This document shows, piece after piece, positions 11,373-26,332 of a stretch of DNA of 64,000 bases. Both the position numbers and the translations under genes were made by a program. The stretch comes from Clostridium sp. 12(A) (GTDB taxonomy: Bacteria > Bacillota > Clostridia > Lachnospirales > Lachnospiraceae). Under the pieces are notes generated by a model that did not search any database, was not told the DNA's origin, and saw nothing but the letters and a program-made list of their open reading frames with translations. The stretch is taken from the NCBI GenBank assembly GCA_000526575.1, contig JAGI01000002.1, forward strand, positions 2,899,501 to 2,963,500, given 5' to 3'. Every line of letters begins with the position of its first letter. Positions within the stretch are counted from its first letter, which is position 1.

Positions 11373-13256
11373 ATGAATCAATGTTATGGATGCAACACGT
11401 GTGAAAGCGCTGACAAGCCACTGGAAAAATTTATTTCCGCACTGCCGATGGAAACATCCCATCACCGTGTGGAAAAACAGAGTACGAAATGCGGTTTCGG
11501 ACTCCAGGGTGTATGCTGCCGCCTTTGTGCCAACGGCCCATGCCGGATTACTCCAAATGCTCCTAGAGGAATCTGCGGTGCTGATGCGGACACCATCGTG
11601 GCAAGAAACTTTTTAAGAGCGGTTGCCTCAGGAAGCGGCTGCTACATACATGTAGTGGAAAACACTGCACTCAATTTAAAGAAGACAGCTCAGGCAAAAG
11701 GCGAACTAAAGGGAATGGAATCCTTAGAGCATTTGGCGGAGCTTTTTGGCGTTGATGAGGCAGATGTTTACAAGAAGGCAGAAAAGATTGCCGATGCGGT
11801 TCTCTCTGATCTCTACAAGCCGGAATATGTGGAAATGGAGCTGACCGAAAAGGTTGCCTATGCTCCCCGCGTAGCACGCTGGAAAGAGCTTGGCATTATG
11901 CCAGGAGGTGCTAAAAGTGAGGTGTTTAAAGGAGTTGTTAAGTGCTCCACCAACTTAAACTCCGATCCTCTTGATATGCTGGTTGATTGTTTACGCCTTG
12001 GTATTTCCACTGGTATTTATGGACTTACACTGACAAACCTGTTAAATGACGTTTTACTGGGACAGCCACAGCTTCGTATGGCTCATGTTGGTCTTCGTGT
12101 CATTAATCCGGATTACATAAACATCATGATTACCGGCCATCAGCATACCATTTTTGTGGATTTACAGGAAAAGCTCATCTCTCCTGAGGCTGTGGCTAAG
12201 GCAAAGGCGGTTGGTGCCAAGGGCTTTAAGCTGGTTGGCTGTACCTGTGTGGGTCAGGATCTCCAGTTAAGAGGCGCGCTTTATCCAGAAGTATTTGACG
12301 GCCATGCAGGCAATAACTACACCAGCGAAGCCGTTCTTGCCACTGGTGCCATTGATGCAGTCCTCTCTGAATTCAACTGTACCCTTCCTGGCATTGAGCC
12401 GATTTGTGATGAATTAAAGATCAAGCAGATCTGTCTTGATGATGTGGCTAAGAAATCAAATGCAGAGCTGATGAAATTTGATTTCGAGCACAGGGAAGAA
12501 CAGAGCGAAAAGATCATTGATAAGGTCATTGAAGCTTATACGGAAAGACGTGGTATCGTTCCTCTTAATTTATTACCGGAACACGGAAACGACAATACCT
12601 TAACCGGTGTCAGCGAGGGTTCCCTTCGAAACTTCTTAGGCGGAAACTGGAAGCCGCTCATCGACCTTATTGTGGCTGGTAAGATCAAAGGAATTGCAGG
12701 CATTGTAGGCTGCTCTAACTTAACCGCTGGCGGCCATGATGTGCTGACGGTGGAGCTGACAAAGGAACTGATCAAAAGAGATATCATTGTCCTGACTGCC
12801 GGCTGTTCTTCCGGCGGTATTGAAAACTGCGGTCTTATGACTCCGGAAGCGGCTGAGCTTGCAGGTCCTAATTTAAGAGAGGTATGTAAAGCTCTTGGAA
12901 TTCCGCCTGTACTGAACTTCGGCCCTTGTCTTGCCATCGGACGTCTGGAAATCGTGGCGACGGAAATTGCGGCTGAGCTTGGCGTGGATCTTCCGAAGCT
13001 TCCTCTGGTTCTTTCTGCTGCCCAGTGGCTGGAAGAGCAGGCAATTGCAGACGGCTGCTTTGGCCTTGCCCTTGGACTTCCTCTTCACTTAGGCTTACCG
13101 CCATTTGTAACCGGAAGCGACGTAGCTGTTAAGGTACTGACAGAAGGCATGAAGAGCCTGACTGGCGGACAGGTGATCATTAATCCGGATGCAAAGGAAA
13201 GTGCTGATATCCTGGAAACAATCATCATGGAGAAGCGTGAGGGTCTTAATATATAG
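11373..13256 (+). CDS. cooS: Anaerobic carbon-monoxide dehydrogenase catalytic subunit, divergent active site
   Basis: Ni-Fe CO dehydrogenase family, 627 residues. Cys40 and Cys48 match the intersubunit D-cluster; Cys49, 52, 57 and 68 the B-cluster; His256, Cys292, 336, 447, 478 and 519 match all six C-cluster ligands. Aligned by eye to the remembered C. hydrogenoformans CODH-II sequence, the four relay histidines (93, 96, 99, 102 there) are Tyr91, Val94, Asn97 and Leu100, and the catalytic Lys563 is Gln556. An extra CYGCNTC motif sits at residues 4-10. CO oxidation is therefore doubtful; the cluster may reduce or sense something else. It lies 12 bases from the ferredoxin gene in one operon. 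Confidence 0.9.
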   Translation: MNQCYGCNTCESADKPLEKFISALPMETSHHRVEKQSTKCGFGLQGVCCRLCANGPCRITPNAPRGICGADADTIVARNFLRAVASGSGCYIHVVENTALNLKKTAQAKGELKGMESLEHLAELFGVDEADVYKKAEKIADAVLSDLYKPEYVEMELTEKVAYAPRVARWKELGIMPGGAKSEVFKGVVKCSTNLNSDPLDMLVDCLRLGISTGIYGLTLTNLLNDVLLGQPQLRMAHVGLRVINPDYINIMITGHQHTIFVDLQEKLISPEAVAKAKAVGAKGFKLVGCTCVGQDLQLRGALYPEVFDGHAGNNYTSEAVLATGAIDAVLSEFNCTLPGIEPICDELKIKQICLDDVAKKSNAELMKFDFEHREEQSEKIIDKVIEAYTERRGIVPLNLLPEHGNDNTLTGVSEGSLRNFLGGNWKPLIDLIVAGKIKGIAGIVGCSNLTAGGHDVLTVELTKELIKRDIIVLTAGCSSGGIENCGLMTPEAAELAGPNLREVCKALGIPPVLNFGPCLAIGRLEIVATEIAAELGVDLPKLPLVLSAAQWLEEQAIADGCFGLALGLPLHLGLPPFVTGSDVAVKVLTEGMKSLTGGQVIINPDAKESADILETIIMEKREGLNI

Positions 13257-13267
13257 GAGGTTGGCTT

Positions 13268-13720
13268 ATGAAACGGATATTCATTGATGCAGCCAAATGC
13301 GACGGCTGCAAGAATTGTTTTATAGCTTGCATGCAGGCACACCGGACGGATGGGGGTTCCGTCTACGACTTAAAGCTTTCCGATCCTCATAATGAATCCC
13401 GCAATCACATCGAAAAAGGCAGAAACGGGGGCTACACCCCAATCTTTTGCCGTCATTGTGACCAGCCGGAATGCGTGATGTCCTGTATGAGCGGGGCACT
13501 TACAAAGGATAGGGAAACAGGACTGGTGCTTTATGATGAATCCGCATGCGGTTCCTGCTTTATGTGCGTGATGAACTGCCCTTACGGAGTGTTAAAGGCG
13601 GACACCAGCACAAAGACTAAGGTAATTAAATGCGATTTCTGTGCAGACAAGGGATTTTCTCCCAGCTGCGTAAAATCATGCCCAACGGGTGCGATCTATG
13701 TAGAGGAGGTGCAGGGATGA
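13268..13720 (+). CDS. CooF-like 4Fe-4S ferredoxin
   Basis: Electron-transfer protein of 150 residues with four cysteine-rich segments (CDGCKNCFIAC, CRHCDQPECVMSC, CGSCFMCVMNC, CDFCADKGFSPSCVKSC), enough for four [4Fe-4S] clusters, as in CooF and the HycB/DmsB family. It would carry electrons between CooS and the flavoprotein encoded next. The ribosome site is TAGGAGG. Its stop overlaps the next start by four bases (ATGA). Confidence 0.93.
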   Translation: MKRIFIDAAKCDGCKNCFIACMQAHRTDGGSVYDLKLSDPHNESRNHIEKGRNGGYTPIFCRHCDQPECVMSCMSGALTKDRETGLVLYDESACGSCFMCVMNCPYGVLKADTSTKTKVIKCDFCADKGFSPSCVKSCPTGAIYVEEVQG

Positions 13721-14946
13721 CTCATGTAATTATCGGTGTAGGGGCTGCCGGAATCACCGCAGCAAAGACCATCAGAGAGCTGGAGCCTGATGCCAGGATC
13801 ATTATGATATCTCCAGATGAATATGTGCACTCCCGGTGTATGCTTCATAAATATTTAAGCCATGAACGGGATGAAAAAACTCTTTCATTTATACCGGAAA
13901 ACTTTTTTGATGCTTCCCGCATCAACTGGATTCAGAAAAAGGCAGTATCCATTGATACGGCCCGTCAGGAGGTGATACTTGAGGATGAATCAAGAACTGC
14001 ATACGACCGTCTCCTCATCGCCACTGGTGCTGATAGCGTGATCCCTCCTATTATGAATTTCAGGGAGGCTAAAAATGTATTTGGACTTCGTAATCTTTCC
14101 GATGCACAGAACATCAGAGCCTGTTCCAAAAAAGCCAGCAAAATCCTGATTGTGGGTTCCGGGCTTGTTGGTATGGATGCGGCTTATGCCTTCCTGGAAC
14201 AGGGAAAGGACGTGACCGTGCTTGAAATGGCAGACAGGATTCTTCCAAAGCAGCTTGATGAGACGGCTGGAAAAGCCTATCAGAAGCTGTTTGAAGAGCA
14301 TGGGTGCAAATTCATCCTTGGCAGGAAAACCGTATTAAGCACCATGCCGGAAACCGATGAGATCACCTCTGTCATGCTTGATGACGGATCTCTCATTGAA
14401 TGCGATATGGTTGTGGTGGCTGCTGGTGTCAGTCCTTCGGTTTCCTGTGCTAAGGGAAGCGACATTACAATCGACCGGTTTATTCAGGTGGATGATTATT
14501 TAAGGACTTCCTGTGACCATGTGTATGCTGCGGGAGATGTGAACGGAATCGCCGGAATCTGGCCGAATGCCATGAAACAGGGTAAGACTGCTGCTTATAA
14601 TATGTGCGGTCAGAGCATGATTTACGAAGACAAATACGGTATGAAAAACACCATGAATTTTTATGGACTCACCACTCTTTCTCTTGGAGACGGCATTGCG
14701 AAAGAGGGAGATCAGGTTATTGTTCGGGAAGATTCTGAAAGCTATAAGAAGGCCATTCTTAGGGATGGCTGCTTAACGAGTATTCTCATTCAAGGCCCTA
14801 TTGATTACTCCGGGATATATCAGTACCTGATTAAGAATCGTATTTGCCTGGATTCTGTAAAGACCGATATCTTCCATCTTTCCTTTGCGGATTTTTATGG
14901 GATTGATGGGACCGGGCAGTTTACGTATCAGGCGGCAGGGATTTAA
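13717..14946 (+). CDS. NAD(P)/FAD-dependent oxidoreductase of the CooS cluster
   Basis: A flavoprotein of the pyridine nucleotide-disulfide oxidoreductase fold, 409 residues. It has an N-terminal FAD Gly motif (VIIGVGAAGITAAKTI), a central NAD(P) motif (ILIVGSGLVGMDAAYAF), the ATG-type RLLIATGAD and YAAGDVNGI motifs. It likely exchanges electrons between the CooF-like ferredoxin and NAD(P). The start is the ATG that overlaps the ferredoxin stop, with GAGGAGG upstream; a longer open frame from 13630 only shadows the ferredoxin gene. CooS-CooF-oxidoreductase triplets are known in other anaerobes. Confidence 0.9.
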   Translation: MTHVIIGVGAAGITAAKTIRELEPDARIIMISPDEYVHSRCMLHKYLSHERDEKTLSFIPENFFDASRINWIQKKAVSIDTARQEVILEDESRTAYDRLLIATGADSVIPPIMNFREAKNVFGLRNLSDAQNIRACSKKASKILIVGSGLVGMDAAYAFLEQGKDVTVLEMADRILPKQLDETAGKAYQKLFEEHGCKFILGRKTVLSTMPETDEITSVMLDDGSLIECDMVVVAAGVSPSVSCAKGSDITIDRFIQVDDYLRTSCDHVYAAGDVNGIAGIWPNAMKQGKTAAYNMCGQSMIYEDKYGMKNTMNFYGLTTLSLGDGIAKEGDQVIVREDSESYKKAILRDGCLTSILIQGPIDYSGIYQYLIKNRICLDSVKTDIFHLSFADFYGIDGTGQFTYQAAGI

Positions 14947-15824: not shown

Positions 15825-15866
15825 AATACGGCAGGCATGAAACCATTCATGCCTGCCGTATTTTTT
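15825..15866 (+). terminator. Terminator after the 55-residue membrane protein
   Basis: A perfect 17-bp stem (AATACGGCAGGCATGAA and complement), ACCA loop and a run of T. It isolates the downstream operon from read-through. Confidence 0.92.
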
Positions 15867-15915
15867 CGTTATGTTATGCTTAAATAGCCAGAACACAGGC
15901 CTTGGACTGCCTAGT

Positions 15916-15943
15916 CACTCTATTTCATAAAAGACATACTATA
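15916..15943 (+). promoter_or_regulatory. Candidate sigma-K (mother-cell) promoter of the legionaminic acid operon
   Basis: CATACTATA at 15935-15943 fits the sigma-K -10 consensus CATAnnnTA. CAC at 15916-15918, about 16 bases upstream, supplies the AC core of the -35. No good sigma-A pair is visible between the preceding terminator and the first gene. The -10 also matches sigma-E fairly well, so either mother-cell factor is possible. The match is short and could be chance. Confidence 0.5.
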
Positions 15944-15946
15944 ACA

Positions 15947-15964
15947 TAGAAATACGTATTTCTA
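15947..15964. repeat. 18-bp perfect palindrome in the operon leader
   Basis: TAGAAATACGTATTTCTA lies just after the candidate -10 and before the first ribosome site. It could be an operator or a hairpin at the mRNA 5' end that stabilises the transcript. Confidence 0.5.
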
Positions 15965-15988
15965 ATGAGAATGTGAGGGGGCGTTTTT

Positions 15989-16273
15989 ATGGCTAACTAT
16001 AAACCGATTGCGAAAACTATTTTGGCCTCTGTTGCAGATTCCGGACAAGTGATTGTTGCAAAACTTTCCACAACCAGCTGGGGTCTTTTGTTGCTTAGAG
16101 GTACTGCTGTCTTTAGCAATACCATTTTAAGGAGCGGTGCTGTTGCGATTTGGGAGAGCACAAAACCAACCACAGAAGAGCCAGATCTTGTAACATTTAC
16201 AGATGCTAACGCAAACTATGGTATCACAACCAGAGCCGGCGTCATACTTCGGTTGAAATTTTACAGTAAGTAA
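15989..16273 (+). CDS. Uncharacterised 94-residue protein, first gene of the glycosylation operon
   Basis: I do not recognise the family. There is no signal peptide and no transmembrane helix; the sequence is rich in Ser, Thr and Ala with short alternating hydrophobic stretches (SWGLLLLRGTAVFSNTILRSGAVAIW; GVILRLKFYSK), suggesting a compact beta protein. It has a GAGGGGG ribosome site seven bases from ATG. As the promoter-proximal gene followed by an mRNA hairpin it may be the most abundant product, which would suit a structural subunit. It carries many Ser/Thr that could accept glycans (inference). Confidence 0.75.
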   Translation: MANYKPIAKTILASVADSGQVIVAKLSTTSWGLLLLRGTAVFSNTILRSGAVAIWESTKPTTEEPDLVTFTDANANYGITTRAGVILRLKFYSK

Positions 16274-16278
16274 TCACT

Positions 16279-16313
16279 TAGGGGTGTCCAGTCACGGTGT
16301 AAGGACACCCCTA
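16279..16313 (+). promoter_or_regulatory. Intercistronic hairpin without U-tract
   Basis: A perfect 11-bp stem TAGGGGTGTCC/GGACACCCCTA between the first and second genes. The absence of a T-run argues against a full terminator; it more likely protects the upstream mRNA 3' end or attenuates, raising expression of the first gene over the rest. Confidence 0.6.
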
Positions 16314-16331
16314 TTAAGGAGGTAGAGAACG

Positions 16332-16619
16332 TTGTCAAACTTATGTTTTACAGGCGGTCAGCTCATCTGTTCCGGAGTTGTGACCGCTGATGCAGTGGCT
16401 CCCGGCAGTTCTTTACTGCTTCTTACGGGAACCGTTTACAGTCCATCAGGAATCCCTCTTTCCGGAGCCGCAGTTGAAATTCTATCCTACCATCCTGACA
16501 ATCCTGATGAAGTGGTCCGGTTGGGACTCTCCTTTACCCTTTCAGACGGAACCTATGCACTCTCTCTTCCCAGAATTCCCGGCAGACAATATGAACTTCG
16601 GGCATTTTCGTCCATATGA
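16332..16619 (+). CDS. Small carboxypeptidase-regulatory-like (CRD) protein, paralog 1
   Basis: A signal-less protein of 95 residues. Residues about 30-92 form a CarboxypepD_reg-like beta sandwich: LTGTVYSPSGIPLSGAAVEI, then SFTLSDGTYALSL and YELRAF. Three paralogs follow in the same operon. It starts at TTG with AAGGAGG nine bases upstream; no ATG fits the domain. The absence of a secretion signal fits assembly inside the mother cell or export by a dedicated route. It could be structural and an acceptor of legionaminic acid (inference). Confidence 0.75.
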   Translation: MSNLCFTGGQLICSGVVTADAVAPGSSLLLLTGTVYSPSGIPLSGAAVEILSYHPDNPDEVVRLGLSFTLSDGTYALSLPRIPGRQYELRAFSSI

Positions 16620-16655
16620 AAAAAGCCAAAAGGGCGACATTTTATGGAGGATACT

Positions 16656-18386
16656 ATGAAAAAAGTCAAAACTTCAGATGGATACTTCGTCTACCGTATA
16701 AAAAAAGACCGGCAGTATCATTTACTGGCAGACAGTGCCAGCTACAGAAACAGCATTAGGGATCTTTTAAATACACTAAGTGATTTAAAATTTGATTCCC
16801 TGATTTTTTTATTTGGAATTGATACAGGCGATTATCTGACGGAATTAAAAAAGGTGCTATGCCCAAAGAATCAAGTCATTATATTTGAACCGAATCTCAC
16901 CATATACCGCAGCTTTTCCAATGATCCGGGGGACAACATAAAGCTGGTGTACTATAAGGAAGATGTGGTAAAAAAGATATTTGAAGAAAGCATTAACTTA
17001 AAGAACATTAACAATATTTATTTCTTTTCCTTTGGTAATTACAGTACCGTATATAAAAAGGAGCATGACAGGCTTATTGAGCATCTGGACTGGACGATTA
17101 TAAAATCCGCTTCCCAGGTATCCTTAGCCAGGCGCTTTAAGAAAGTATTTATTAAAAATATGATTGCCAACATGAAGATAATTGACCAGTCCACTCCCAT
17201 TCACCACTACCTGTTTTCCAATGCAGGGGTACCGGCCATCGTGGTATCGGGAGGGCCTTCTCTTGATCAGAACATAGAGGTCATGAAAAAACACAAAGAC
17301 AGGTTAAAGGATTGCTTTATTATTACAGGAAGCAGAACCGTAGATGCCCTGATTAAAAATGGAATTACCCCTGATCTCATCGTATCGGTGGATCCGGTGG
17401 ATGCCAACTTTGATATGATGAAGGAGCATTTGGATCTTACGGTGCCTCTTGCCTTTTATGAGTACAGCAACCGGTATCTTATGAAACATTATAAGGGAGA
17501 AAAAATCTTTATCTCCCTGCTGCTTTCCCACACCGTAAAAGGAATGGAGCACTTAAAGGCCGTCTACTGCGGCGGCTCTGTTTCACATGCCTGCATTGAC
17601 ATCGCTGCTATGCTTGGCTGCTCTCCCATTTTGCTGATTGGCCAGGACCTGGCTTATACGGACCAGAAGCATCATGCGGACAGTGCCACATTTCTCTATG
17701 ACAGCACCATAAACTATGCACCTCAGACCCTTACAAAGGACATAAACGGTCAATGGGTCGGTTCCACGGTGACTCTTGATTATTTCAGAAAAAACTTAGA
17801 GCTTTATATCAATCAATACAAGGACCATCCCTTTATACGCTTCATTAACTGCTCCTACGGTGCTGAAATAAATGGGGCCCCTCACAAGGAGCTTGATGAG
17901 ATGCTAGGTCACGGTGATTTCTCAAAGAAAAAGGTGCCTTTTCTTCCCAGTCATGAACTGACCCTGGATTCAGAGGATATTATTAAGTCCCTGTTGGAGT
18001 TTTTAGAGGATTCTATCATTAAGACAGAACAGGGTCTGGAGCTATGTGAGACCATACGTCTGGAGAATGAGACCAAATCTCTTGTTGAAGTTGAGGAGGA
18101 TGACATTGACCTTCAGCGTATTCTCTATATCCTGCATCTGGTAAACAGCTTTGAGAACCATCCCTACACCAGTTACCTGGGGGGATATTACAGTGAATTT
18201 CTCTATGAAATAAAGGAAGAGCACAATTCCATGCTGGCAAAGGATTTTGAACATCTGACCTCTGACCTTCAATATCAGGCCAACTTCTTCTATGAGTACT
18301 TTTCAAAGCTCCATGAGATTTTAACAGAGATCAGGGATACTGCCCGTTCTACGGTATCAGAATTTTATGAATCGCATATAGTTTAA
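16656..18386 (+). CDS. Maf/DUF115-family glycosyltransferase
   Basis: Motility-accessory-factor type protein of 576 residues. The central DUF115 (6-hydroxymethylpterin pyrophosphokinase MptE-like) domain is clear: AIVVSGGPSLDQNIEVMKKH, IITGSRTVDALIKNGITPDLIVSVDP, and AMLGCSPILLIGQDLAYTDQKHHA. Maf enzymes transfer nonulosonic acids (pseudaminic or legionaminic) onto Ser/Thr of flagellin in other bacteria. Here no flagellin is nearby, but the donor pathway and small candidate acceptors are. The ATG at 16656 is chosen because the upstream ATG lies in the GGAGG ribosome site. Confidence 0.88.
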   Translation: MKKVKTSDGYFVYRIKKDRQYHLLADSASYRNSIRDLLNTLSDLKFDSLIFLFGIDTGDYLTELKKVLCPKNQVIIFEPNLTIYRSFSNDPGDNIKLVYYKEDVVKKIFEESINLKNINNIYFFSFGNYSTVYKKEHDRLIEHLDWTIIKSASQVSLARRFKKVFIKNMIANMKIIDQSTPIHHYLFSNAGVPAIVVSGGPSLDQNIEVMKKHKDRLKDCFIITGSRTVDALIKNGITPDLIVSVDPVDANFDMMKEHLDLTVPLAFYEYSNRYLMKHYKGEKIFISLLLSHTVKGMEHLKAVYCGGSVSHACIDIAAMLGCSPILLIGQDLAYTDQKHHADSATFLYDSTINYAPQTLTKDINGQWVGSTVTLDYFRKNLELYINQYKDHPFIRFINCSYGAEINGAPHKELDEMLGHGDFSKKKVPFLPSHELTLDSEDIIKSLLEFLEDSIIKTEQGLELCETIRLENETKSLVEVEEDDIDLQRILYILHLVNSFENHPYTSYLGGYYSEFLYEIKEEHNSMLAKDFEHLTSDLQYQANFFYEYFSKLHEILTEIRDTARSTVSEFYESHIV

Positions 18387-18415
18387 TAAATCTGCCGGAA
18401 GGAAAGAGGATTTGT

Positions 18416-18580
18416 ATGGAACAGGAAAATAAGAACGAGATCATCGATGGTAAATACAAAGAAATAAAGATCAATAAAATGATTGTAAACGGCAAAGAGC
18501 AGGAAGGCAATATCATTCGTGGGGAGGACACCAAAAACCTGCAGGAATTAAATGTAACGGTTTATACCCAAAACGAGTAA
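18416..18580 (+). CDS. Small hydrophilic protein, 54 residues
   Basis: A short ORF with an AAAGAGGA ribosome site between the Maf gene and CRD paralog 2. It is highly charged (MEQENKNEIIDGKYKEIKI) with a possible beta-strand end (NLQELNVTVYTQNE). No family recognised. Its position inside a tightly packed operon, and the spacing to both neighbours, support it as a real gene. Confidence 0.65.
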   Translation: MEQENKNEIIDGKYKEIKINKMIVNGKEQEGNIIRGEDTKNLQELNVTVYTQNE

Positions 18581-18604
18581 GGGTGTAAGGAGGGGGGAGT
18601 TTCA

Positions 18605-18931
18605 ATGGACGGTCCCAGAAGGAACACATTTATGATCCGGGGCTCCAAGCTTCTGCCATGGAGGGAAAATCACTATAATTTTCATCTAAGCCGGGATCAT
18701 CACCAGATCATAAAAGGAACGGTATATTCAGAGGAGGGGACCCCCTGCGCCGGTGCTTCCATCATGCTTACTCAAATCGATGAAGCGAACCAGGAACGTC
18801 TTGTCCTTGGCTATGCCGTAACCGATGAGGCCGGACAGTATCTTTTTTCCCTTGAAGCAAAGCCGCAGATGAAGTATGAGTTGACGGTCTATGCTCCCCT
18901 CATAACAAACCAGAAGGAGGACTCTTCTTGA
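18605..18931 (+). CDS. Small CRD protein, paralog 2
   Basis: A signal-less protein of 108 residues. After a basic N-terminal stretch of about 38 residues comes the beta domain IIKGTVYSEEGTPCAGASIML, GYAVTDEAGQYLFSL, YELTVYAP, matching the other three paralogs. The ribosome site is GGAGGGGG. Its stop overlaps the next start by four bases, so the CRD proteins are translated in a coupled chain. Structural or glycan-acceptor role is inferred from context. Confidence 0.75.
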   Translation: MDGPRRNTFMIRGSKLLPWRENHYNFHLSRDHHQIIKGTVYSEEGTPCAGASIMLTQIDEANQERLVLGYAVTDEAGQYLFSLEAKPQMKYELTVYAPLITNQKEDSS

Positions 18932-19227
18932 GCGGTTATACTGAACTGATTATTCCACCGGACAAATTTAATAATCGTAACGTGGCTCAGGCGGTAATCA
19001 CCATGGAAGCCTCCTGTGAAGTATTATTAACGGGTACTGTATTAAACCCACAATGTCAGGCCATTGAAGGTGCCGTGGTCCGCATCACTGCGGTCAGCAT
19101 CTTAAAGCAGAAAACGCTTCTCGGTTATGTCTTAACCAACCAGTTCGGCGAATTTGCGGTTGCTGTTTTAAGAAATCCCCAGATTGATTATCAGCTTGAT
19201 ATGTTTGAGCCGGTCCAGAGCATTTGA
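18928..19227 (+). CDS. Small CRD protein, paralog 3
   Basis: A protein of 99 residues without signal peptide. The beta domain runs from about residue 32: VLLTGTVLNPQCQAIEGAVVRI, GYVLTNQFGEFAVAV, YQLDMFEP. The start is TTG overlapping the preceding stop (TTGA), with AAGGAGG seven bases upstream. The N-terminal 30 residues (MSGYTELIIPPDKFNN) are unique to this paralog and may set its partner or location. Confidence 0.75.
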   Translation: MSGYTELIIPPDKFNNRNVAQAVITMEASCEVLLTGTVLNPQCQAIEGAVVRITAVSILKQKTLLGYVLTNQFGEFAVAVLRNPQIDYQLDMFEPVQSI

Positions 19228-19241
19228 GAAAGGGGAGTCTT

Positions 19242-19493
19242 ATGGCACATGCAATCATTCGAGGCCTGGTCCGGCACACCGACCGCGCCCCTGTTGTGGG
19301 AGCCGTAGTGATCCTGGAACGGCTGGTCCCTGTGTTTAACGAGGAACGAAAGGAAGAAGACTTATCAAGCGTTTACTTAGGCCATACCCTGACCAACCGG
19401 CATGGAGAATTCTGCTTTGCCGTTTCTGACAGAACAATCACGTATCGTGTCAAGGTATTTGATAACAGCCACGGAGAAGGGAGAAATCCATGA
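19242..19493 (+). CDS. Small CRD protein, paralog 4
   Basis: A protein of 83 residues, essentially only the beta domain: AIIRGLVRHTDRAPVVGAVVIL, a longer charged loop (FNEERKEEDLSS), GHTLTNRHGEFCFAV and YRVKVFD. The ATG after AAAGGGGAG is chosen over an in-frame TTG that overlaps the previous stop. The end overlaps LegB by four bases, which couples the acceptor-like proteins directly to the sugar pathway genes. Confidence 0.75.
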   Translation: MAHAIIRGLVRHTDRAPVVGAVVILERLVPVFNEERKEEDLSSVYLGHTLTNRHGEFCFAVSDRTITYRVKVFDNSHGEGRNP

Positions 19494-20470
19494 AGAAGGT
19501 GCTGGTGACCGGAGCCGATGGTTTTATCGGAAGCCATCTTACCGAAGAGCTGGTTCTAAAGGGGTATGAAGTCAGGGCACTTGCTTATTACAACTCCTTT
19601 AACAGCTATGGCTGGCTGGATACCCTGCCGGCTCCTATAAGAAATGAAATTGAGATTGTAAGCGGAGACATCAGAGACCCCAATGGGGTAAGGGCCTGTC
19701 TTTCCAGTATTGACTCTGTCTTTCATCTGGCAGCCCTCATTGCCATTCCCTACAGCTATCAGTCTCCCGATTCCTATGTAGATACCAATGTAAAAGGGAC
19801 CTTAAACGTCCTTCAGGCAGCCAAAAGCCTGGGGACCGGTAAGGTGCTCATCACCTCAACCTCAGAGGTCTACGGAAGTGCGGATTACGTTCCTATTGAT
19901 GAAGCTCACCCCAAAAAAGCCCAATCCCCCTATGCCGCCACGAAAATAGGGGCAGACCAGCTCGCTCTGTCCTTTTACCGCAGCTTTTCCCTGCCGGTGA
20001 CCATCGTCCGTCCCTTTAATACCTACGGACCAAGACAATCAGCCAGAGCGGTGATACCAACCATTATCAGCCAGCTTCTGGCTGGAAAAAAGGAGATTCG
20101 GCTGGGCAGTCTTACGCCTACCAGAGACTTTAATTATGTAAAGGATACGGTAAACGGCTTCATAGAGATAGAACGCGCACCCGAAACCATGGGAGAAGAA
20201 ATAAACATAGCAAGCGGCAAAGAAATCTCCATCGGGGATCTGGCAGAGGAACTCATACGCCAGATCAATCCGGAAGCCAGAATCCTTTGCGAGGACCAAA
20301 GGCTCCGCCCGGAAAAGAGTGAGGTAACAAGGCTTCTTGGCTCCAATGAAAAACTGACCCGCCTCACTAAATGGAAGCAGGAATACCCTCTCTCCGTTGG
20401 GCTTCAAAATACCATTCAGTGGATAAAAGAGAATGGGGACCGTTTCCGGACAGACCAATACATTGTTTAG
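19490..20470 (+). CDS. legB: NAD-dependent sugar-nucleotide 4,6-dehydratase, LegB type
   Basis: Extended short-chain dehydrogenase of 326 residues acting on GDP- or UDP-GlcNAc, giving the 4-keto-6-deoxy sugar that starts legionaminic acid synthesis. It has the NAD motif GADGFIGSH (8-16), STSEVYG, catalytic YAATK and RPFNTYGPRQ. It belongs to the LegB-like dehydratases found next to LegC aminotransferases. The start overlaps the CRD paralog 4 stop. A GDP substrate is favoured because a PtmE-like guanylyltransferase is in the operon. Confidence 0.85.
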   Translation: MKKVLVTGADGFIGSHLTEELVLKGYEVRALAYYNSFNSYGWLDTLPAPIRNEIEIVSGDIRDPNGVRACLSSIDSVFHLAALIAIPYSYQSPDSYVDTNVKGTLNVLQAAKSLGTGKVLITSTSEVYGSADYVPIDEAHPKKAQSPYAATKIGADQLALSFYRSFSLPVTIVRPFNTYGPRQSARAVIPTIISQLLAGKKEIRLGSLTPTRDFNYVKDTVNGFIEIERAPETMGEEINIASGKEISIGDLAEELIRQINPEARILCEDQRLRPEKSEVTRLLGSNEKLTRLTKWKQEYPLSVGLQNTIQWIKENGDRFRTDQYIV

Positions 20471-20490
20471 ACCAATCGGAAGGGAGTCAT

Positions 20491-21639
20491 ATGATACCGT
20501 TATCCGTTCCTGTTTTAAAAGGAAATGAAAAGAAATATATAGACGATGCCATCACAAGCGGCTGGATCTCCACCGCCGGCAGCTACGTGACCCGCTTTGA
20601 AAGGGAAATGGCAGACTACTTAAAGGTTCCAAACACTGCCGCAGTACAAAGCGGTACGGCGGCCCTCCACCTGGCTATGCTTCTTTCCGGCATTAAAAGG
20701 GATGAGGAGGTCATCGTACCTACTCTCACCTTTATTGCCGCAGTCAATCCAGTGACATACTTAGGCGCTCATCCCATCTTTATGGACTGCGACCATACCC
20801 TGAATATGGACTCAGAAAAGCTGGAGAGATTTCTAAAAACAGAGTGTACCAAAACTCAGGAAGGCCTTTTAAACCGTACTACAGGGCGGATCATAAAAGC
20901 TGTTGTCATTGTTCATGTCTTTGGCAGCATGGCTGATATGGAAACCCTTCTAAGCCTATGTAAGGAGTACCATCTAAAACTGATTGAAGATGCAACGGAA
21001 GCACTTGGAACCAAGTACACCGAAGGGAGCTTAAAAGGCAGGTTTGCAGGCACCATAGGAGATTTTGGTGCTTATTCCTTTAATGGCAATAAGATAATCA
21101 CTACTGGCGGAGGCGGTATGATCACTGCCAGAAATGAGGAGGATTTAAAAAAGGCCGTATACTTATCCGCACAGGCTAAGGATGATCCATTTTACTACGT
21201 TCATCATGAAGTCGGTTATAACTACCGTATGACCAACCTCCAGGCAGCCTTAGGCGTGGGACAGCTGGAATGTCTGGAAGAGTACATTGAAAAAAAGAGA
21301 GAGAACTACGGTTATTACAAAAGCTTATTAAAGGACAGAGACGATGTCTCACTTCTTTCATTTTGCGAAAAGGCCAGAAATAACCATTGGTTTTATTCCC
21401 TGCTCTTAAATAACCACAAATCTGGGCGGGATGAACTTATGACCAGGTTAAGGGAATCCGGCATTGAAACAAGACCCATCTGGAAGCTTATTCACACCCA
21501 GACCATGTATAAGGACTGTCAGGCGTATTATATTGAGAAAGCACCCTTTTACCAGAGCAATGTGATCAATCTTCCTTGCAGCGTAAACCTTAAGGAAGCT
21601 GACATGAATTTTATTGTTAAGACCCTGAATGAAGGGTGA
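20491..21639 (+). CDS. legC: PLP-dependent sugar aminotransferase, LegC type
   Basis: DegT/DnrJ/EryC1-family aminotransferase of 382 residues, adding the 4-amino group to the keto sugar from LegB. Features: VQSGTAALHLAM cofactor loop, IEDATEALGT aspartate, and SFNGNKIITTGGGG with the PLP lysine. The ATG follows GGAAGGGAG; an in-frame extension into the legB reading is rejected. It is translationally close to legB (20-base gap). Confidence 0.88.
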   Translation: MIPLSVPVLKGNEKKYIDDAITSGWISTAGSYVTRFEREMADYLKVPNTAAVQSGTAALHLAMLLSGIKRDEEVIVPTLTFIAAVNPVTYLGAHPIFMDCDHTLNMDSEKLERFLKTECTKTQEGLLNRTTGRIIKAVVIVHVFGSMADMETLLSLCKEYHLKLIEDATEALGTKYTEGSLKGRFAGTIGDFGAYSFNGNKIITTGGGGMITARNEEDLKKAVYLSAQAKDDPFYYVHHEVGYNYRMTNLQAALGVGQLECLEEYIEKKRENYGYYKSLLKDRDDVSLLSFCEKARNNHWFYSLLLNNHKSGRDELMTRLRESGIETRPIWKLIHTQTMYKDCQAYYIEKAPFYQSNVINLPCSVNLKEADMNFIVKTLNEG

Positions 21640-21662
21640 TTACCGGAAGGAGGATGGCTTAC

Positions 21663-22709
21663 ATGGACGTAAAGAAATTCTCAATTTCACCAGATGATTC
21701 CATCAAAACAGCAATCCGGCAGTTAGATAAAACGGCGAAGAAACTCCTGGTGGTAGTTCGAAATGACAAGCTGGTGGGGGTAATTACGGATGGAGACATC
21801 CGGCGCTGGATCCTAAAAAACGAAAATCTATCCATGGCCGTAAGCCGCATTATGAACACCTCTCCTATCGTAATTACACGGTCAGAAACTCCCCTGGCTC
21901 TTGATATCATGAGAGAGAAAAAGATTGAAGGACTTCCACTTGTAAATGAACACATGGAGGTTGTGGATATTTTATTCTGGAACGAACTGAATTCCTCCAA
22001 GGAAAGGATAACAGAGGGCAAAAAGGTTCCTGTAGTCATCATGGCAGGAGGAAAGGGCTCCAGACTCTATCCTTATACTAAAATCATACCAAAACCCTTA
22101 ATTCCCATTGGGGATACCCCCATCGTGGAACGAATCATGAATCAGATGATGTCTTACGGTTTTACGGAATTCTATCTCACGGTGAACTACCGAAAAGAAC
22201 TGATTAAAGCGTATTTTAACGATGATGACCGCTATCATCTTAACTTTATAGAAGAAAAGGAGCCACTTGGCACCGCTGGCTCTCTCTCACTTTTAAAAGA
22301 TAAAATTACAGACAGCTTCTTTGTCAGCAACTGTGATATTTTAGTGGACGTAAATTACGAAAAGCTCCTTGACCATCATATCAAAAATGAAAATCAGATC
22401 ACCGTAGTCACTGCAATGAAAAATTATGAGGTTCCTTATGGTGTAGTTTCACTGGATGAAGAAGGCCGCATACAGGCCTTAAATGAAAAGCCCAGCTATG
22501 AATTTCTCGTCAGCACCGGTCTGTACGTTCTGGAAAAAGGTGTTTTAAACAATCTCCCGGAAGGAGCCCCATTTGATATGCCGGATCTGATCCGCCTCTG
22601 TCTGCAAAACGGGAAGAAAGCAGGTGCGTATCCGGTAATGGACAGCACCTGGCTTGACATGGGGGAATTCAGTGAAATGAGAAAAATGGCGGAGCGTATG
22701 AAGCTATGA
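21663..22709 (+). CDS. CBS-domain nucleotidyltransferase, PtmE-like (glucosamine-1-phosphate guanylyltransferase)
   Basis: 348 residues. The N-terminal 120 residues are a CBS pair (DKLVGVITDGDIRRW; IEGLPLVNEHMEVVDI), followed by a sugar-phosphate nucleotidyltransferase domain with MAGGKGSRLYPYTKIIPKPLIPIGDTP. This architecture matches Campylobacter PtmE, which makes the GDP-amino sugar for legionaminic acid; the CBS pair may give feedback control. The start ATG is nine bases after AAGGAGG. The end overlaps the next gene by four bases. Confidence 0.85.
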   Translation: MDVKKFSISPDDSIKTAIRQLDKTAKKLLVVVRNDKLVGVITDGDIRRWILKNENLSMAVSRIMNTSPIVITRSETPLALDIMREKKIEGLPLVNEHMEVVDILFWNELNSSKERITEGKKVPVVIMAGGKGSRLYPYTKIIPKPLIPIGDTPIVERIMNQMMSYGFTEFYLTVNYRKELIKAYFNDDDRYHLNFIEEKEPLGTAGSLSLLKDKITDSFFVSNCDILVDVNYEKLLDHHIKNENQITVVTAMKNYEVPYGVVSLDEEGRIQALNEKPSYEFLVSTGLYVLEKGVLNNLPEGAPFDMPDLIRLCLQNGKKAGAYPVMDSTWLDMGEFSEMRKMAERMKL

Positions 22710-23371
22710 AAAAAAAGCTGATACTGATTGGTGGAGGCGGCCATGGAGAAAGCGTCATTGATTCCATTCGTTCTGCCAATGAATACGATATCATTGGTAT
22801 TCTGGACCAAAAGCTTGAGGCAGGCACATCCATTTGTGGTATTCCGGTTCTGGGAACCGATGAACTCCTGTCTGACCTTTGCCATCAAGGAATTTCTTAC
22901 GGTGTCATAGCCGTAGGTAGTCTGGGAGACCCCCGTCCAAGAATCCGAATTTATGAGACCTTAAAGCAAAATGGGTTAGTGTTGCCTAACATCATAGATA
23001 AAAGTGCAGTCCTATCTCAGAATGTATCAATGGGGGAAGGCAGCTTTATTGGCAAGGGTGTTATCATTGGGGCCAGGGCGGTTCTTGGTAAAGGCTGTAT
23101 CATTAATACAGGAGCAATTATAGAGCATGGTGCAAGCATCGGGGATTTTGTTCACATCGCCCCAGGCTGCGTTCTGTGCGGCAATGTGTCCGTGGGGGAA
23201 CATACTCACATTGGAGCCGGAACCACAGTCATTCAAAATATCACCATAGGAGACAATACCATGATCGGAGCCGGAAGTCTCGTATTAAGGAATATTTCTT
23301 CCCATACTCTGGCTTTTGGAAAGCCTGCAAAGGAGGTCGGTGTTTATGAACAGAGTTATGATTATCGCTGA
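22706..23371 (+). CDS. NeuD/PglD-family sugar N-acetyltransferase (LegH-like)
   Basis: 221 residues. The N-terminal Rossmann-like part (LILIGGGGHGESVIDSI) is followed by a left-handed beta-helix of hexapeptide repeats (about 95-205), as in PglD and NeuD. In legionaminic acid synthesis LegH acetylates the 4-amino sugar made by LegC; alternatively it O-acetylates the final acid. Overlaps PtmE-like (ATGA) and the following synthase gene by 26 bases. Confidence 0.82.
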   Translation: MKKKLILIGGGGHGESVIDSIRSANEYDIIGILDQKLEAGTSICGIPVLGTDELLSDLCHQGISYGVIAVGSLGDPRPRIRIYETLKQNGLVLPNIIDKSAVLSQNVSMGEGSFIGKGVIIGARAVLGKGCIINTGAIIEHGASIGDFVHIAPGCVLCGNVSVGEHTHIGAGTTVIQNITIGDNTMIGAGSLVLRNISSHTLAFGKPAKEVGVYEQSYDYR

Positions 23372-24341
23372 AGCAGGGGTAAACCATAATGGAGATTTGG
23401 ATACAGCCAAAGGGCTGGTGGATGCAGCAAGGGAAGCGGGAGCAGATGCAGTGAAATTTCAGACCTACCTCACCGAGCTTTTGGCTGTCAGGGACGCAAT
23501 AAAGGCAGAGTATCAGTACCGGAACACAGGGAAAAGTCTCTCCCAATATGAAATGCTGAAAGAACTGGAACTATCCTATGACAGCTTCAGAGAACTTTCT
23601 CTTTATTGTACTTCCCGCAATATCATGTTCTTATCTTCCCCATTTGACGAAACAAGCATGGAATATCTGAATCAGCTAGGAGTTAAAATCATAAAAATCC
23701 CCTCCGGAGAAATTACGAATTATGGGTACTTAAAGAAAGCTGCTTCCTTACAAAAACCAATCATTCTCTCCACTGGCATGTCTACCATGGAAGAGATTGG
23801 GGAGGCACTGAATCTTCTTGATGAGAGCGGTCAGGATATCACTCTGCTCCACTGCACCAGCGCTTATCCCACTCCAATGGAGGAAGTGAACTTAAATGCC
23901 ATGTCCCATATGAGGCAAGTATTTTCAAGAAGCATTGGCTACTCCGACCATAGCATGGGAATTGAGGTTGCCATTGCCGCTGCTGCCCTGGGTGCCTGCG
24001 TCATTGAAAAGCATATGACCCTTGATAAGACCATGCCCGGACCAGACCACAGGCTAAGCCTGGAGCCAGCTGAATTCAGACTTATGACCGACAGCATAAG
24101 AAACATTGAACTAGCTTTGGGAAACGGATATAAGGAACCATCGAAGGAAGAATGTAAAAACCGGGACCGTGTGAGAAAGTTTCTGGTGGCTTCCAGGGAC
24201 ATAAAAAAAGGGGAGCCGTTTACCATGGATAATCTATGCGCCAAACGCTGTTCCCCTGGAATCTCTCCCATGAGGCTTAAAGCCCTCCTTGGGACGCCTT
24301 CTGACAGGGATTATAAAATGGATGAAAGGATTATTAAATGA
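23346..24341 (+). CDS. legI: N,N'-diacetyllegionaminic acid synthase (NeuB family, LegI)
   Basis: Condenses phosphoenolpyruvate with the 6-deoxy di-N-acetyl-mannosamine-type sugar. 331 residues: NeuB TIM barrel (IIAEAGVNHNGD, AVKFQTY, IKIPSGEI, LHCTSAYPTP, GYSDHS, EKHMTLDKTMPGPDH) and a C-terminal SAF antifreeze-like domain (ASRDIKKGEPFTMDNL). The start has AAGGAGG nine bases upstream and lies inside the acetyltransferase gene. A second, distinct NeuB occurs near the right edge of the window. Confidence 0.92.
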   Translation: MNRVMIIAEAGVNHNGDLDTAKGLVDAAREAGADAVKFQTYLTELLAVRDAIKAEYQYRNTGKSLSQYEMLKELELSYDSFRELSLYCTSRNIMFLSSPFDETSMEYLNQLGVKIIKIPSGEITNYGYLKKAASLQKPIILSTGMSTMEEIGEALNLLDESGQDITLLHCTSAYPTPMEEVNLNAMSHMRQVFSRSIGYSDHSMGIEVAIAAAALGACVIEKHMTLDKTMPGPDHRLSLEPAEFRLMTDSIRNIELALGNGYKEPSKEECKNRDRVRKFLVASRDIKKGEPFTMDNLCAKRCSPGISPMRLKALLGTPSDRDYKMDERIIK

Positions 24342-25501
24342 TGCGGTTATGCGTGGTAACAGGCAGCCGGGCGGAGTACGGTCTATTAACTCCAGTCATT
24401 CGTAAAGCCATGGCCGATCCTGATATAAAGCTTCAAATGGTAGTAACAGGTGCTCACATGGATTCCAGATTTGGTTCCCCTTACCGGGACATGGAGCCGG
24501 ACGGGATAACCATAGATGAAACCGTGGAAATGAATCTGGCCAGCGACACTTCCTATGGAATCTGTAAGTCCATGGGCCTTGAGCTCATTGGTATTTCTAA
24601 GGCGTATGAGAGGTTAAAGCCGGATATGATACTGCTTTTAGGCGACCGCTATGAGATCTTTACCGCTGCAAGCGCTGCTACCATTTGCCGGATTCCCATT
24701 GCCCATATTCATGGCGGGGAGCTGACAAGGGGCGCTTTTGATGACTGCATGAGGCATGGAATTACCAAAATGAGCTACCTTCATTTCACCAGTACAATGG
24801 AATATAGAAAACGGGTGATACAACTGGGGGAAGCGCCGGAGAGAGTCTTTTACGTTGGAGCTCTGGGTGTGGAAAGGCTTAAGGAGCTGTCTTTCCTCTC
24901 CAAAAAGGAACTGGAGGAATCCTTAAACCTTTCCCTGGGATTTAAACTTGCCCTGATCACATTTCATCCTGCCACACTGGAAACAAAGAGTGTCGAAGAG
25001 CAAATTAAGCCACTGTTTCAAGCCCTGGATTCCCTGCCCTCTTTGTTTGCCATATTTACTGGAAGCAATTCAGATACAGGTGGAAGCCGTATCAATGAAT
25101 TGGCTGCCGATTATGCAAAATGCCACCCGGAACGGGCTGCTTTTTTTACGTCTCTTGGCTCACTTCGATATTTAAGTCTTATGAGCCACTGTCAGGTGGT
25201 CATCGGAAACTCCTCCAGCGGAATTATCGAGGCTCCCAGCCTTAAGGTCCCGACCGTGAACATCGGTACCAGACAAATGGGGCGGGTGATGGCAGATTCT
25301 GTGATCAATTGTGATGATACTTATGACAGTATTCTATCAGCCATTCACAAAGCAATGGAAGTTGACTGGGTAAATCCCTCCCTCCATAATCCTTATGAAT
25401 GTCCGAGTACCAGCGGAAGAATAATTTCTGAAATAAAGAAGGCGTTTCAAAATGGGATTCAACTGGAGAAGGAATTTTTTGATATCGATTGGAGTTTGTA
25501 A
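24338..25501 (+). CDS. legG: UDP/GDP-sugar hydrolysing 2-epimerase (NeuC/LegG family)
   Basis: 387 residues, WecB/NeuC fold. It removes the nucleotide and inverts C2 to give the mannosamine-type substrate for LegI. Features: CVVTGSRAEYGLLTPVI at the N-terminus, LLGDRYEIF, HIHGGELTRGAFDD and IGNSSSGIIEAP. It overlaps LegI by four bases and LegF by one, so all three are coupled. Confidence 0.9.
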   Translation: MMRLCVVTGSRAEYGLLTPVIRKAMADPDIKLQMVVTGAHMDSRFGSPYRDMEPDGITIDETVEMNLASDTSYGICKSMGLELIGISKAYERLKPDMILLLGDRYEIFTAASAATICRIPIAHIHGGELTRGAFDDCMRHGITKMSYLHFTSTMEYRKRVIQLGEAPERVFYVGALGVERLKELSFLSKKELEESLNLSLGFKLALITFHPATLETKSVEEQIKPLFQALDSLPSLFAIFTGSNSDTGGSRINELAADYAKCHPERAAFFTSLGSLRYLSLMSHCQVVIGNSSSGIIEAPSLKVPTVNIGTRQMGRVMADSVINCDDTYDSILSAIHKAMEVDWVNPSLHNPYECPSTSGRIISEIKKAFQNGIQLEKEFFDIDWSL

Positions 25502-26220
25502 TGTATGAGAACAAACGGTTTTTAGCATTTATACCAGCCAGAAGCGGTTCCAAGGGACTGACCAATAAGAACATTCTGGAGCTAAATCATAAGCCACTCA
25601 TGGCATATACCATAGAGGCCTGTAAAAAAGCCGGAATTTTTGACGATATTGTTGTCTCTACAGACTCGGAGCAGTATAGGGATATCGCGAATCAATGGGG
25701 CGCATCTGCCCCATTTTTAAGGCCTGCATGGCTTTCAGGGGATAAAGCTGCCACAAAGAACGTAATCATTCATGGAATCAAAGAGATGGAACGGCTTGGA
25801 AAGACGTATGATTATATCATGCTGCTTCAGCCTACGTCTCCATTGAGAAATGAAATGCATATAAGAGAGAGCGTGAAACGTTACTTTGAGACAGGAGCAG
25901 ACACCATAGTCAGCGTATGTCCCTTTGACTGTAACTGTTATTTGGCTGTGACCCTTAAGGAATCTGGTGAGATTGGGATTCCATCTCTTCATGATAAACA
26001 GATAAGAAGGCAGGATGTCTCATCAGGATATCGGTTGAATGGGGCTGTCTATCTTACCTCTGTGCCATTTTACTTAAAGCACGAAAACTTTTATGCGGGG
26101 ACCACCTATCCTTATTTTATGGATCCACTACATTCCATTGATATTGACGATGAGTATGAATTTTATATGGCGGAGCTGCTTTTAAAAAATGGGGTGCCTG
26201 CACATTTACATGAAACATAA
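25501..26220 (+). CDS. legF: CMP-legionaminic acid synthetase (NeuA/LegF family)
   Basis: 239 residues. It activates the nonulosonic acid with CTP, making the donor for the Maf transferase. The cytidylyltransferase motif FIPARSGSKGLTNKNI, LQPTSPLRNEMHI and SIDIDDEYEF are visible. The ATG overlaps the legG stop (TAATG). It is the last gene of the operon; no clear terminator with a T-run follows. Confidence 0.92.
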   Translation: MYENKRFLAFIPARSGSKGLTNKNILELNHKPLMAYTIEACKKAGIFDDIVVSTDSEQYRDIANQWGASAPFLRPAWLSGDKAATKNVIIHGIKEMERLGKTYDYIMLLQPTSPLRNEMHIRESVKRYFETGADTIVSVCPFDCNCYLAVTLKESGEIGIPSLHDKQIRRQDVSSGYRLNGAVYLTSVPFYLKHENFYAGTTYPYFMDPLHSIDIDDEYEFYMAELLLKNGVPAHLHET

Positions 26221-26332
26221 GATTATAAGAAATTGAAATAGATATGGTTGTATTTTCAGCTGTAGCTACAGCTACATCTGCATTGGCACTTATTTTTACT
26301 GGCTCTTCACAGATTGCAAGGTAATGCTGCCT

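What the first reader, a model, noticed from the sequence alone, without database searches (positions are those of the whole stretch)
15916..26220. Putative spore-surface glycosylation operon: legionaminic acid pathway, Maf transferase and small signal-less acceptor candidates under a sigma-K-like promoter
Seen: 14 tightly coupled plus-strand genes (many ATGA/TTGA overlaps) combine four small CRD proteins, a 94-residue leader protein, a Maf/DUF115 transferase and LegB, LegC, PtmE-like, NeuD-like, LegI, LegG and LegF. The only good promoter match is CATACTATA with an upstream AC, like sigma-K. None of the small proteins has a signal peptide. Known: Maf proteins glycosylate flagellin with nonulosonic acids; Bacillus spore crust uses sps genes related to legionaminic acid synthesis. 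Inference: this operon builds and sugar-coats a spore (or other non-flagellar) protein layer, with acceptors encoded in cis.
Basis: partly seen in the sequence, partly recalled or inferred. Interest (0 to 1): 0.85.

Follow-up and report, generated by a model that had tools for sequence, protein, structure and literature searches.

The report
Spore-type Maf operon with built-in acceptors
A conserved gene cluster in spore-forming bacteria appears to make a sialic-acid-like sugar and attach it, with an enzyme type known from flagella, to small proteins that probably coat the spore; the sugar-attaching step on spores was reported as unidentified in the model species.

Summary
In detail: 14 tandem plus-strand genes at 15989-26220 encode a 94-aa leader, four CRD-like proteins, a Maf (PF01973), a 54-aa protein and a legionaminic-type CMP-nonulosonate pathway. 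Relatives are Lacrimispora. Gene order is identical in 19 of 19 congeners with long enough contigs. All 22 aligned promoters read TCAC-N16-CATANNATA, the sigma-K type, followed by a 16-bp palindrome found once per genome in 22 of 25 genomes. In the same genome the motif also precedes a sporulation protein and Cys/Asn-rich coat-like proteins. A core of CRD-like proteins, Maf and 54-aa protein, usually with the leader, recurs in other families of Clostridia, partly with other sugar genes. These Mafs separate from flagellin-linked Mafs (100/98); flagellin lies in 0 of 57 module stretches against 15 of 17 others. The leader is probably a divergent CRD relative. Best reading: the mother cell makes the CMP-sugar and Maf O-glycosylates CRD-like proteins that assemble on the spore. 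Sporulation control, acceptor identity and location are inferred; there are no RNA, protein or glycan data. Outside the genus the motif was found before the leader in only 8 of 17 readable loci.

The parts
15825..15862 (+). strong intrinsic terminator of the upstream 55-aa gene; insulates the operon
   Evidence: 17-pair stem then T run
15915..15943 (+). sigma-K-type promoter, TCAC-N16-CATACTATA
   Evidence: 22 of 22 sequences fit TCAC-N16-CATANNATA; genome scan
15948..15963 (+). 16-bp perfect palindrome AGAAATACGTATTTCT at about the expected transcription start; candidate operator
   Evidence: one site per genome in 22 of 25 genomes
15989..16273 (+). 94-aa leader protein, probably a divergent CRD-like relative; top acceptor candidate (21% Ser+Thr)
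   Evidence: model of too low confidence
16332..16619 (+). CRD1, CRD-like small protein (20% Ser+Thr)
   Evidence: PF13620 E 5e-4, below cut-off
16656..18386 (+). Maf/PF01973 glycosyltransferase of the non-flagellar group
   Evidence: PF01973 153 bits, cut-off 34.6; tree
18416..18580 (+). 54-aa conserved protein (s54), no family matched over a cut-off
18605..18931 (+). CRD2, CRD-like small protein
   Evidence: PF13620 E 4e-7, 30.8 bits, below cut-off
18928..19227 (+). CRD3, CRD-like small protein
   Evidence: below cut-off; profile comparison
19242..19493 (+). CRD4, CRD-like small protein
   Evidence: below cut-off; start by comparison
19490..20470 (+). LegB 4,6-dehydratase
   Evidence: TIGR04180 497 bits, cut-off 475
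20491..21639 (+). LegC aminotransferase
   Evidence: TIGR04181 482 bits, cut-off 420
21663..22709 (+). PtmE-like CBS + nucleotidyltransferase (name and GDP-sugar branch from recall)
   Evidence: PF00571 + PF00483
22706..23371 (+). NeuD-like sugar acetyltransferase, probable LegH role
   Evidence: TIGR03570 222 bits, cut-off 161
23346..24341 (+). LegI/NeuB-type nonulosonate synthase
   Evidence: TIGR03569 461 bits, cut-off 400
24338..25501 (+). LegG/NeuC-type hydrolysing 2-epimerase
   Evidence: TIGR03568 440 bits, cut-off 236
25501..26220 (+). LegF CMP-nonulosonate cytidylyltransferase
   Evidence: PF02348; TIGR03584 174 bits, below cut-off 206

Best explanation
This is a self-contained spore-surface O-glycosylation operon. 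Late in sporulation sigma-K RNA polymerase in the mother cell starts from 15915-15943. PtmE, LegB, LegC, the NeuD-like acetyltransferase, LegG, LegI and LegF make a CMP-legionaminic-type sugar. The Maf transfers it in the mother-cell cytoplasm to Ser/Thr of the leader and CRD-like beta proteins made from the same mRNA; lacking signal peptides, these assemble from the mother-cell side onto the forespore as an outer glycoprotein layer. Shown by sequence: genes, order, promoter motif, conservation, separation from flagellar Mafs. Inferred: sigma-K control in vivo, enzyme activities, acceptor identity, location.
For: Whole-operon synteny in 19 of 19 congeners with adequate contigs and in the same-species genome; near-complete in three named records outside the genus. 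Promoter TCAC-N16-CATANNATA in 22 of 22; AC at -35 distinguishes sigma-K from sigma-E (ATA) in C. difficile (PMC3789822, section 8), and PMC5749712 (section 8) quotes the consensus a/cACa/c-N16-CATA-N3-TA. Own-genome motif scan: 25 hits against 9 for the reversed pattern; 9 have a gene 23-45 bases on, among them a YlmC/YmxH sporulation protein above cut-off and four Cys/Asn-rich coat-like proteins. spoIVA in 24 of 25 genus genomes, the miss being 67% complete. Of 37 Maf loci fetched outside the genus, the 20 with Maf scores of 262 bits or more (or, L202, found by its leader) all have at least two CRD-like genes and an s54 (weak in L137, E 7e-5), 18 a leader; the 17 at 253 bits or less have none. 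Flagellin in 0 of 57 module stretches, 15 of 17 others. Maf groups split at 100/98. Leader versus CRD1 profile E 1.4e-11.
Against: No expression, proteomic or glycan data. Outside the genus an exact AC-N14-17-CATANNNTA within 250 bp before the leader is found in 8 of 17 readable loci (L202 by eye) and in L087; L189, L190, L193, L197-L199 lack it, and L137, L194, L196 have it only before s54. G017 and G022, congeners with spoIVA, lack leader and palindrome. The scan is not pure: 12 of 25 hits were flagged inside longer frames, and an ABC ATPase and a 53-aa peptide also follow the motif. The yabG positive control could not be run: 0 of 25 genomes have it. Leader-CRD kinship from Lacrimispora sequences alone is weak (36%, E 4e-4). 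No family match for the leader. Legionaminic rather than another nonulosonate rests on LegB/LegC; LegI and LegG also pass NeuB and NeuC cut-offs.
Confidence: 0.62

Rival explanations
1. The operon is a sporulation operon, but the sugar goes to another acceptor (an unlinked coat or exosporium protein, or a polysaccharide), and the CRD-like proteins are scaffolds or partners of the transferase.
For: No sequon is known for Maf enzymes (PMC11339370, passage); s54 and CRD4 are poor in Ser/Thr; four Cys/Asn-rich proteins share the promoter type elsewhere in the genome.
Against: Maf, CRD-like genes and s54 stay together in 20 of 20 loci outside the genus even where sugar genes differ; leader and CRD1 are richest in Ser/Thr among the proteins compared.
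Confidence: 0.2
2. The operon builds a vegetative or stationary-phase protein layer, not a spore one; the CATANNATA promoter belongs to another sigma factor of similar specificity.
For: 9 of 17 readable leader loci outside the genus lack the motif there; motif-based sigma assignment is indirect; sigma-E and sigma-K share the -10.
Against: AC at -35 in 22 of 22 rather than ATA; the same motif precedes a sporulation protein and coat-like genes; probable lack of signal peptides fits mother-cell assembly.
Confidence: 0.13
3. Ordinary flagellin glycosylation cluster that has drifted away from the flagellar genes.
For: PF01973 Maf with Leg genes is the usual flagellar set, as in L143 and L203; the own flagellin lies about 48 kb past the operon.
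Against: That flagellar locus has its own PF01973 gene; 0 of 57 module stretches carry flagellin against 15 of 17; separate Maf group; CRD-like genes interleaved.
Confidence: 0.04

Closest known systems
Bacillus subtilis sps genes (CMP-legionaminic acid for the spore crust; PMC7439481, passages read)
   Same: Legionaminic pathway, late sporulation, spore surface; the paper states that the transferase and final acceptor remained to be identified.
   Different: Here a Maf transferase and a family of small candidate acceptors are encoded in the same operon; the PtmE-like gene suggests a GDP-sugar branch (recall), while the B. subtilis route is drawn with UDP-sugars.
Flagellar Maf systems, e.g. 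Clostridium botulinum CbMaf (PMC11339370, abstract and passages read) and Clostridium NulO clusters (PMC13317340, passages read)
   Same: Maf transferase using CMP-nonulosonates on Ser/Thr; CbMaf also modified mini-flagellin grafted on a beta-sandwich protein, though not that protein alone.
   Different: No flagellin here, separate Maf group, CRD-like partners, sigma-K-type promoter.
Clostridium taeniosporum appendage genes (PMC5749712, section 8 read)
   Same: Clustered spore-surface proteins, one a glycoprotein, with sigma-K-type promoters.
   Different: DUF11 and collagen-like proteins; 'CRD' there means repeat domains, not carboxypeptidase-like; no Maf in the section read.

Membership tests
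Maf/PF01973 glycosyltransferase | match to PF01973 over the cut-off | tested here: met
   153 bits, cut-off 34.6
Maf/PF01973 glycosyltransferase | transfers a CMP-nonulosonate to protein Ser/Thr | not testable with these tools
   needs enzyme assay
Flagellin-modifying Maf system | flagellin gene at the locus | tested here: not met
   0 of 57 module stretches (at least 42 genomes, with duplicates) against 15 of 17 comparison loci; two further own-genome PF01973 loci outside that count: L047 with flagellin, L049 without
Flagellin-modifying Maf system | groups with flagellin-linked Mafs in a tree | tested here: not met
   29 module Mafs on one side of a 100/98 branch, 18 others on the other side
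Legionaminic acid pathway | LegB and LegC over family cut-offs | tested here: met
Legionaminic acid pathway | product is CMP-legionaminic acid | not testable with these tools
   LegI and LegG score over NeuB/NeuC cut-offs; LegF under the PseF cut-off
Carboxypeptidase regulatory-like domain (PF13620) | score over the Pfam cut-off | tested here: not met
   20.8, 30.8, 18.9, 19.0 bits against 32.3; hence 'CRD-like' only
Sigma-K regulon | promoter with AC at -35 and CATANNNTA at -10 | tested here: met
   22 of 22 in the genus; 8 of 17 readable leader loci outside
Sigma-K regulon | loss of transcript in a sigK mutant | not testable with these tools
   needs experiment

The most novel reading that the evidence does not exclude
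A previously undescribed, old class of Maf system dedicated to the endospore: a mother-cell, cytoplasmic O-glycosylation module whose acceptors are a five-member family of CRD-like beta proteins that build an outer spore layer, conserved over at least three families of Clostridia while the attached sugar is swapped, and tuned in Lacrimispora by a regulator acting through a palindrome found once per genome.
Probability: 0.45. Interest if true: 0.85.

Novelty: new variant of a known kind. Interest (0 to 1): 0.72.

Why it matters
In B. subtilis legionaminic acid coats the spore, but its transferase and acceptor were reported in 2020 as unidentified (PMC7439481, passages). This operon offers both as testable candidates in one transcript, and suggests that Maf enzymes, studied as flagellin modifiers, have a second, sporulation branch. 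It gives markers for a spore glycoprotein layer in Lachnospiraceae and other Clostridia.

Tried and rejected
RNA hairpin reading of the palindrome: changed bases in L086 and L087 first looked like compensation, but folding energies were not below shuffles (0.096 to 0.88 of 500 shuffles as low for the four Lachnospiraceae sequences), and L202 keeps much of the sequence while breaking the pairing (by eye). A 6-bp stem near that place in L087 has a chance of about 0.02. I prefer a DNA operator, undecided.

Structure of the leader: the AlphaFold model had mean pLDDT 46.9, too low for a fold search, so none was run; a second job, for CRD2, was not accepted. No convincing PDB relative for the leader (best E 0.016, OspA, taken as chance) or for this Maf (0 at E 0.01).

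yabG as a positive control for sigma-K promoters: absent from all 25 genomes.

Limits of my counts: iterated profiles mix the CRD subfamilies, so CRD1-4 labels outside the genus are loose; the sets were chosen by best hit in those profiles, a possible bias. In one search the two further own-genome PF01973 loci were left out of the 17: L047 has flagellin, L049 (a polysaccharide cluster) has none and no CRD-like or leader match. Module stretches are at most about 22 kb, some 3 kb, so flagellin further off is not excluded. G017 and G022 were searched for leader and palindrome, not for the Maf.

Literature: searches (open-licence PMC only; listings capped) showed no title describing a spore Maf or this operon. 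Subscription journals are not covered.
Full report
Observation. The window is G000:C2:2899501-2963500; named relatives place it in Lacrimispora. The 14 genes read as described. LegB, LegC, NeuD-like, LegI (NeuB family) and LegG (NeuC family) pass curated cut-offs, LegF does not; PtmE has CBS and nucleotidyltransferase domains. The four CRD proteins match PF13620 only below its cut-off.

Conservation. The leader occurs in 22 of 24 genomes of the genus (own included) and in 0 of 37 others of a first sample. Of 21 other-genome loci fetched, 19 are long enough to hold the operon and all 19 have the 14 genes in the same order; L030 and L046 end early. The same-species genome G061 has all 14 too. 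One of the 19, L038, shows split matches in several genes, unresolved. In 397 genomes of the family, leader and close Maf (over 500 bits) occur in the same 4 of 334 genera. Close Mafs occur in three of 391 class genomes besides the own one, and in the family of G819 18 of 206 genomes pass E 1e-60.

Promoter. Twenty-two upstream regions (window and 21 congeners) all fit TCAC-N16-CATANNATA; AGAAATACGTATTTCT follows exactly in 21 of 22, while flanks diverge. The palindrome is found at one site in 22 of 25 genomes, always here; the misses are G017 and G022, without leader, and G001, with one change. In C. [quoted passage not shown] A pattern search of the own genome gave 25 sites against 9 for the reversed pattern. 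Twelve of the 25 were flagged inside longer frames. Nine have a gene 23-45 bases past the motif: this operon, four Cys/Asn-rich small proteins, a YlmC/YmxH sporulation protein (64 bits, cut-off 44; its site was among the 12 flagged), a rubrerythrin-like protein, an ABC ATPase and a 53-aa peptide. So the motif is enriched for sporulation-type genes but not pure. That the Cys/Asn-rich proteins are coat proteins is my judgement; no family named them so.

Module beyond the genus. Three named records, Candidatus Galacturonibacter soehngenii, [Clostridium] fimetarium and a Clostridia MAG, keep the operon (fimetarium without LegC; the MAG contig ends in PtmE) and the promoter. The Maf scores split without overlap, 262 bits and up with module, 253 and down without (L202 came by its leader). 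Sugar genes vary: L136 and L189 have a distant epimerase (28-29%), and by sight a PIG-L-type deacetylase and an acetyltransferase-like gene; of the pathway genes sought, L135 has only PtmE and L194 none in view. Exact AC-N14-17-CATANNNTA within 250 bases of the leader: 8 of 17 readable loci, where the pattern's density in these loci predicts about 0.03 each.

Not flagellar. With the own flagellin as query, 0 of 57 module stretches (window, 20 congeners, 16 named-record loci that partly duplicate them, 20 outside) but 15 of 17 other Maf loci carry flagellin; the two misses are L139, on a short contig, and L144. Left out of that count are the own L047 (flagellin present) and L049 (none). A maximum-likelihood tree of 47 Mafs puts the 29 module Mafs on one side of a 100/98 branch; its root is not known. 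The own flagellar cluster past the window has a separate PF01973 gene.

Small proteins. Profile comparison of disjoint leader and CRD1 sets (39 and 44 sequences) gives 97.4% and E 1.4e-11, with weaker links to CRD2-4; s54 is unrelated. Lacrimispora sequences alone gave 36%. Leader and CRD1 are richest in Ser+Thr (21% and 20%; Maf 13%), and seven leader Ser/Thr columns are at least 90% kept in 39 sequences.

Reading. A Maf that sits with small, probably signal-less beta proteins and not with flagellin, under a sigma-K-type promoter, beside a CMP-nonulosonate pathway, is best explained as a mother-cell glycosylation system for a spore-surface layer. Dubois et al. (PMC7439481, passages) write that in B. 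subtilis the acceptor and transferase of spore legionaminic acid remained to be identified; CbMaf modified mini-flagellin grafted on a beta-sandwich protein but not that protein alone (PMC11339370, passages). Weak points: no expression or glycan data, the motif missing before the leader at 9 of 17 loci outside the genus, leader and palindrome missing from two congeners that have spoIVA, and an acceptor role resting on linkage and composition.

Noticed in passing
L154, L156, L162, L166 (minus strand), own genome: Four Cys/Asn-rich small proteins behind the same sigma-K-type motif, three with a YxxG(Y/F)xDG-like stretch; possibly an undescribed coat or exosporium family.
   Followed up: partly
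window 15948-15963: Operon-specific 16-bp palindrome at the expected transcription start; binder unknown.
   Followed up: partly
L086 / L134: [Clostridium] fimetarium lacks LegC between LegB and PtmE, and its 54-aa homologue has a long QESEPQESDA-type repeat tail.
   Followed up: no
L076, L079: MAGs labelled Paenibacillaceae carry a Lacrimispora-type operon; the labels look wrong.
   Followed up: no
L038 / L089: Several operon genes appear split in a complete Lacrimispora xylanisolvens genome; sequencing indels or decay.
   Followed up: no
L049: A third PF01973 gene of the own genome lies in a polysaccharide-type cluster, with neither flagellin nor CRD-like genes in the stretch.
   Followed up: partly
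window 11373-14946: Carbon monoxide dehydrogenase-like gene (by sight) followed by a ferredoxin-like and an NAD(P)H oxidoreductase-like gene.
   Followed up: no
window 26258-26273: Inverted repeat AGCTGTAGCTACAGCT just past LegF without a T run; possible operon end.
   Followed up: no
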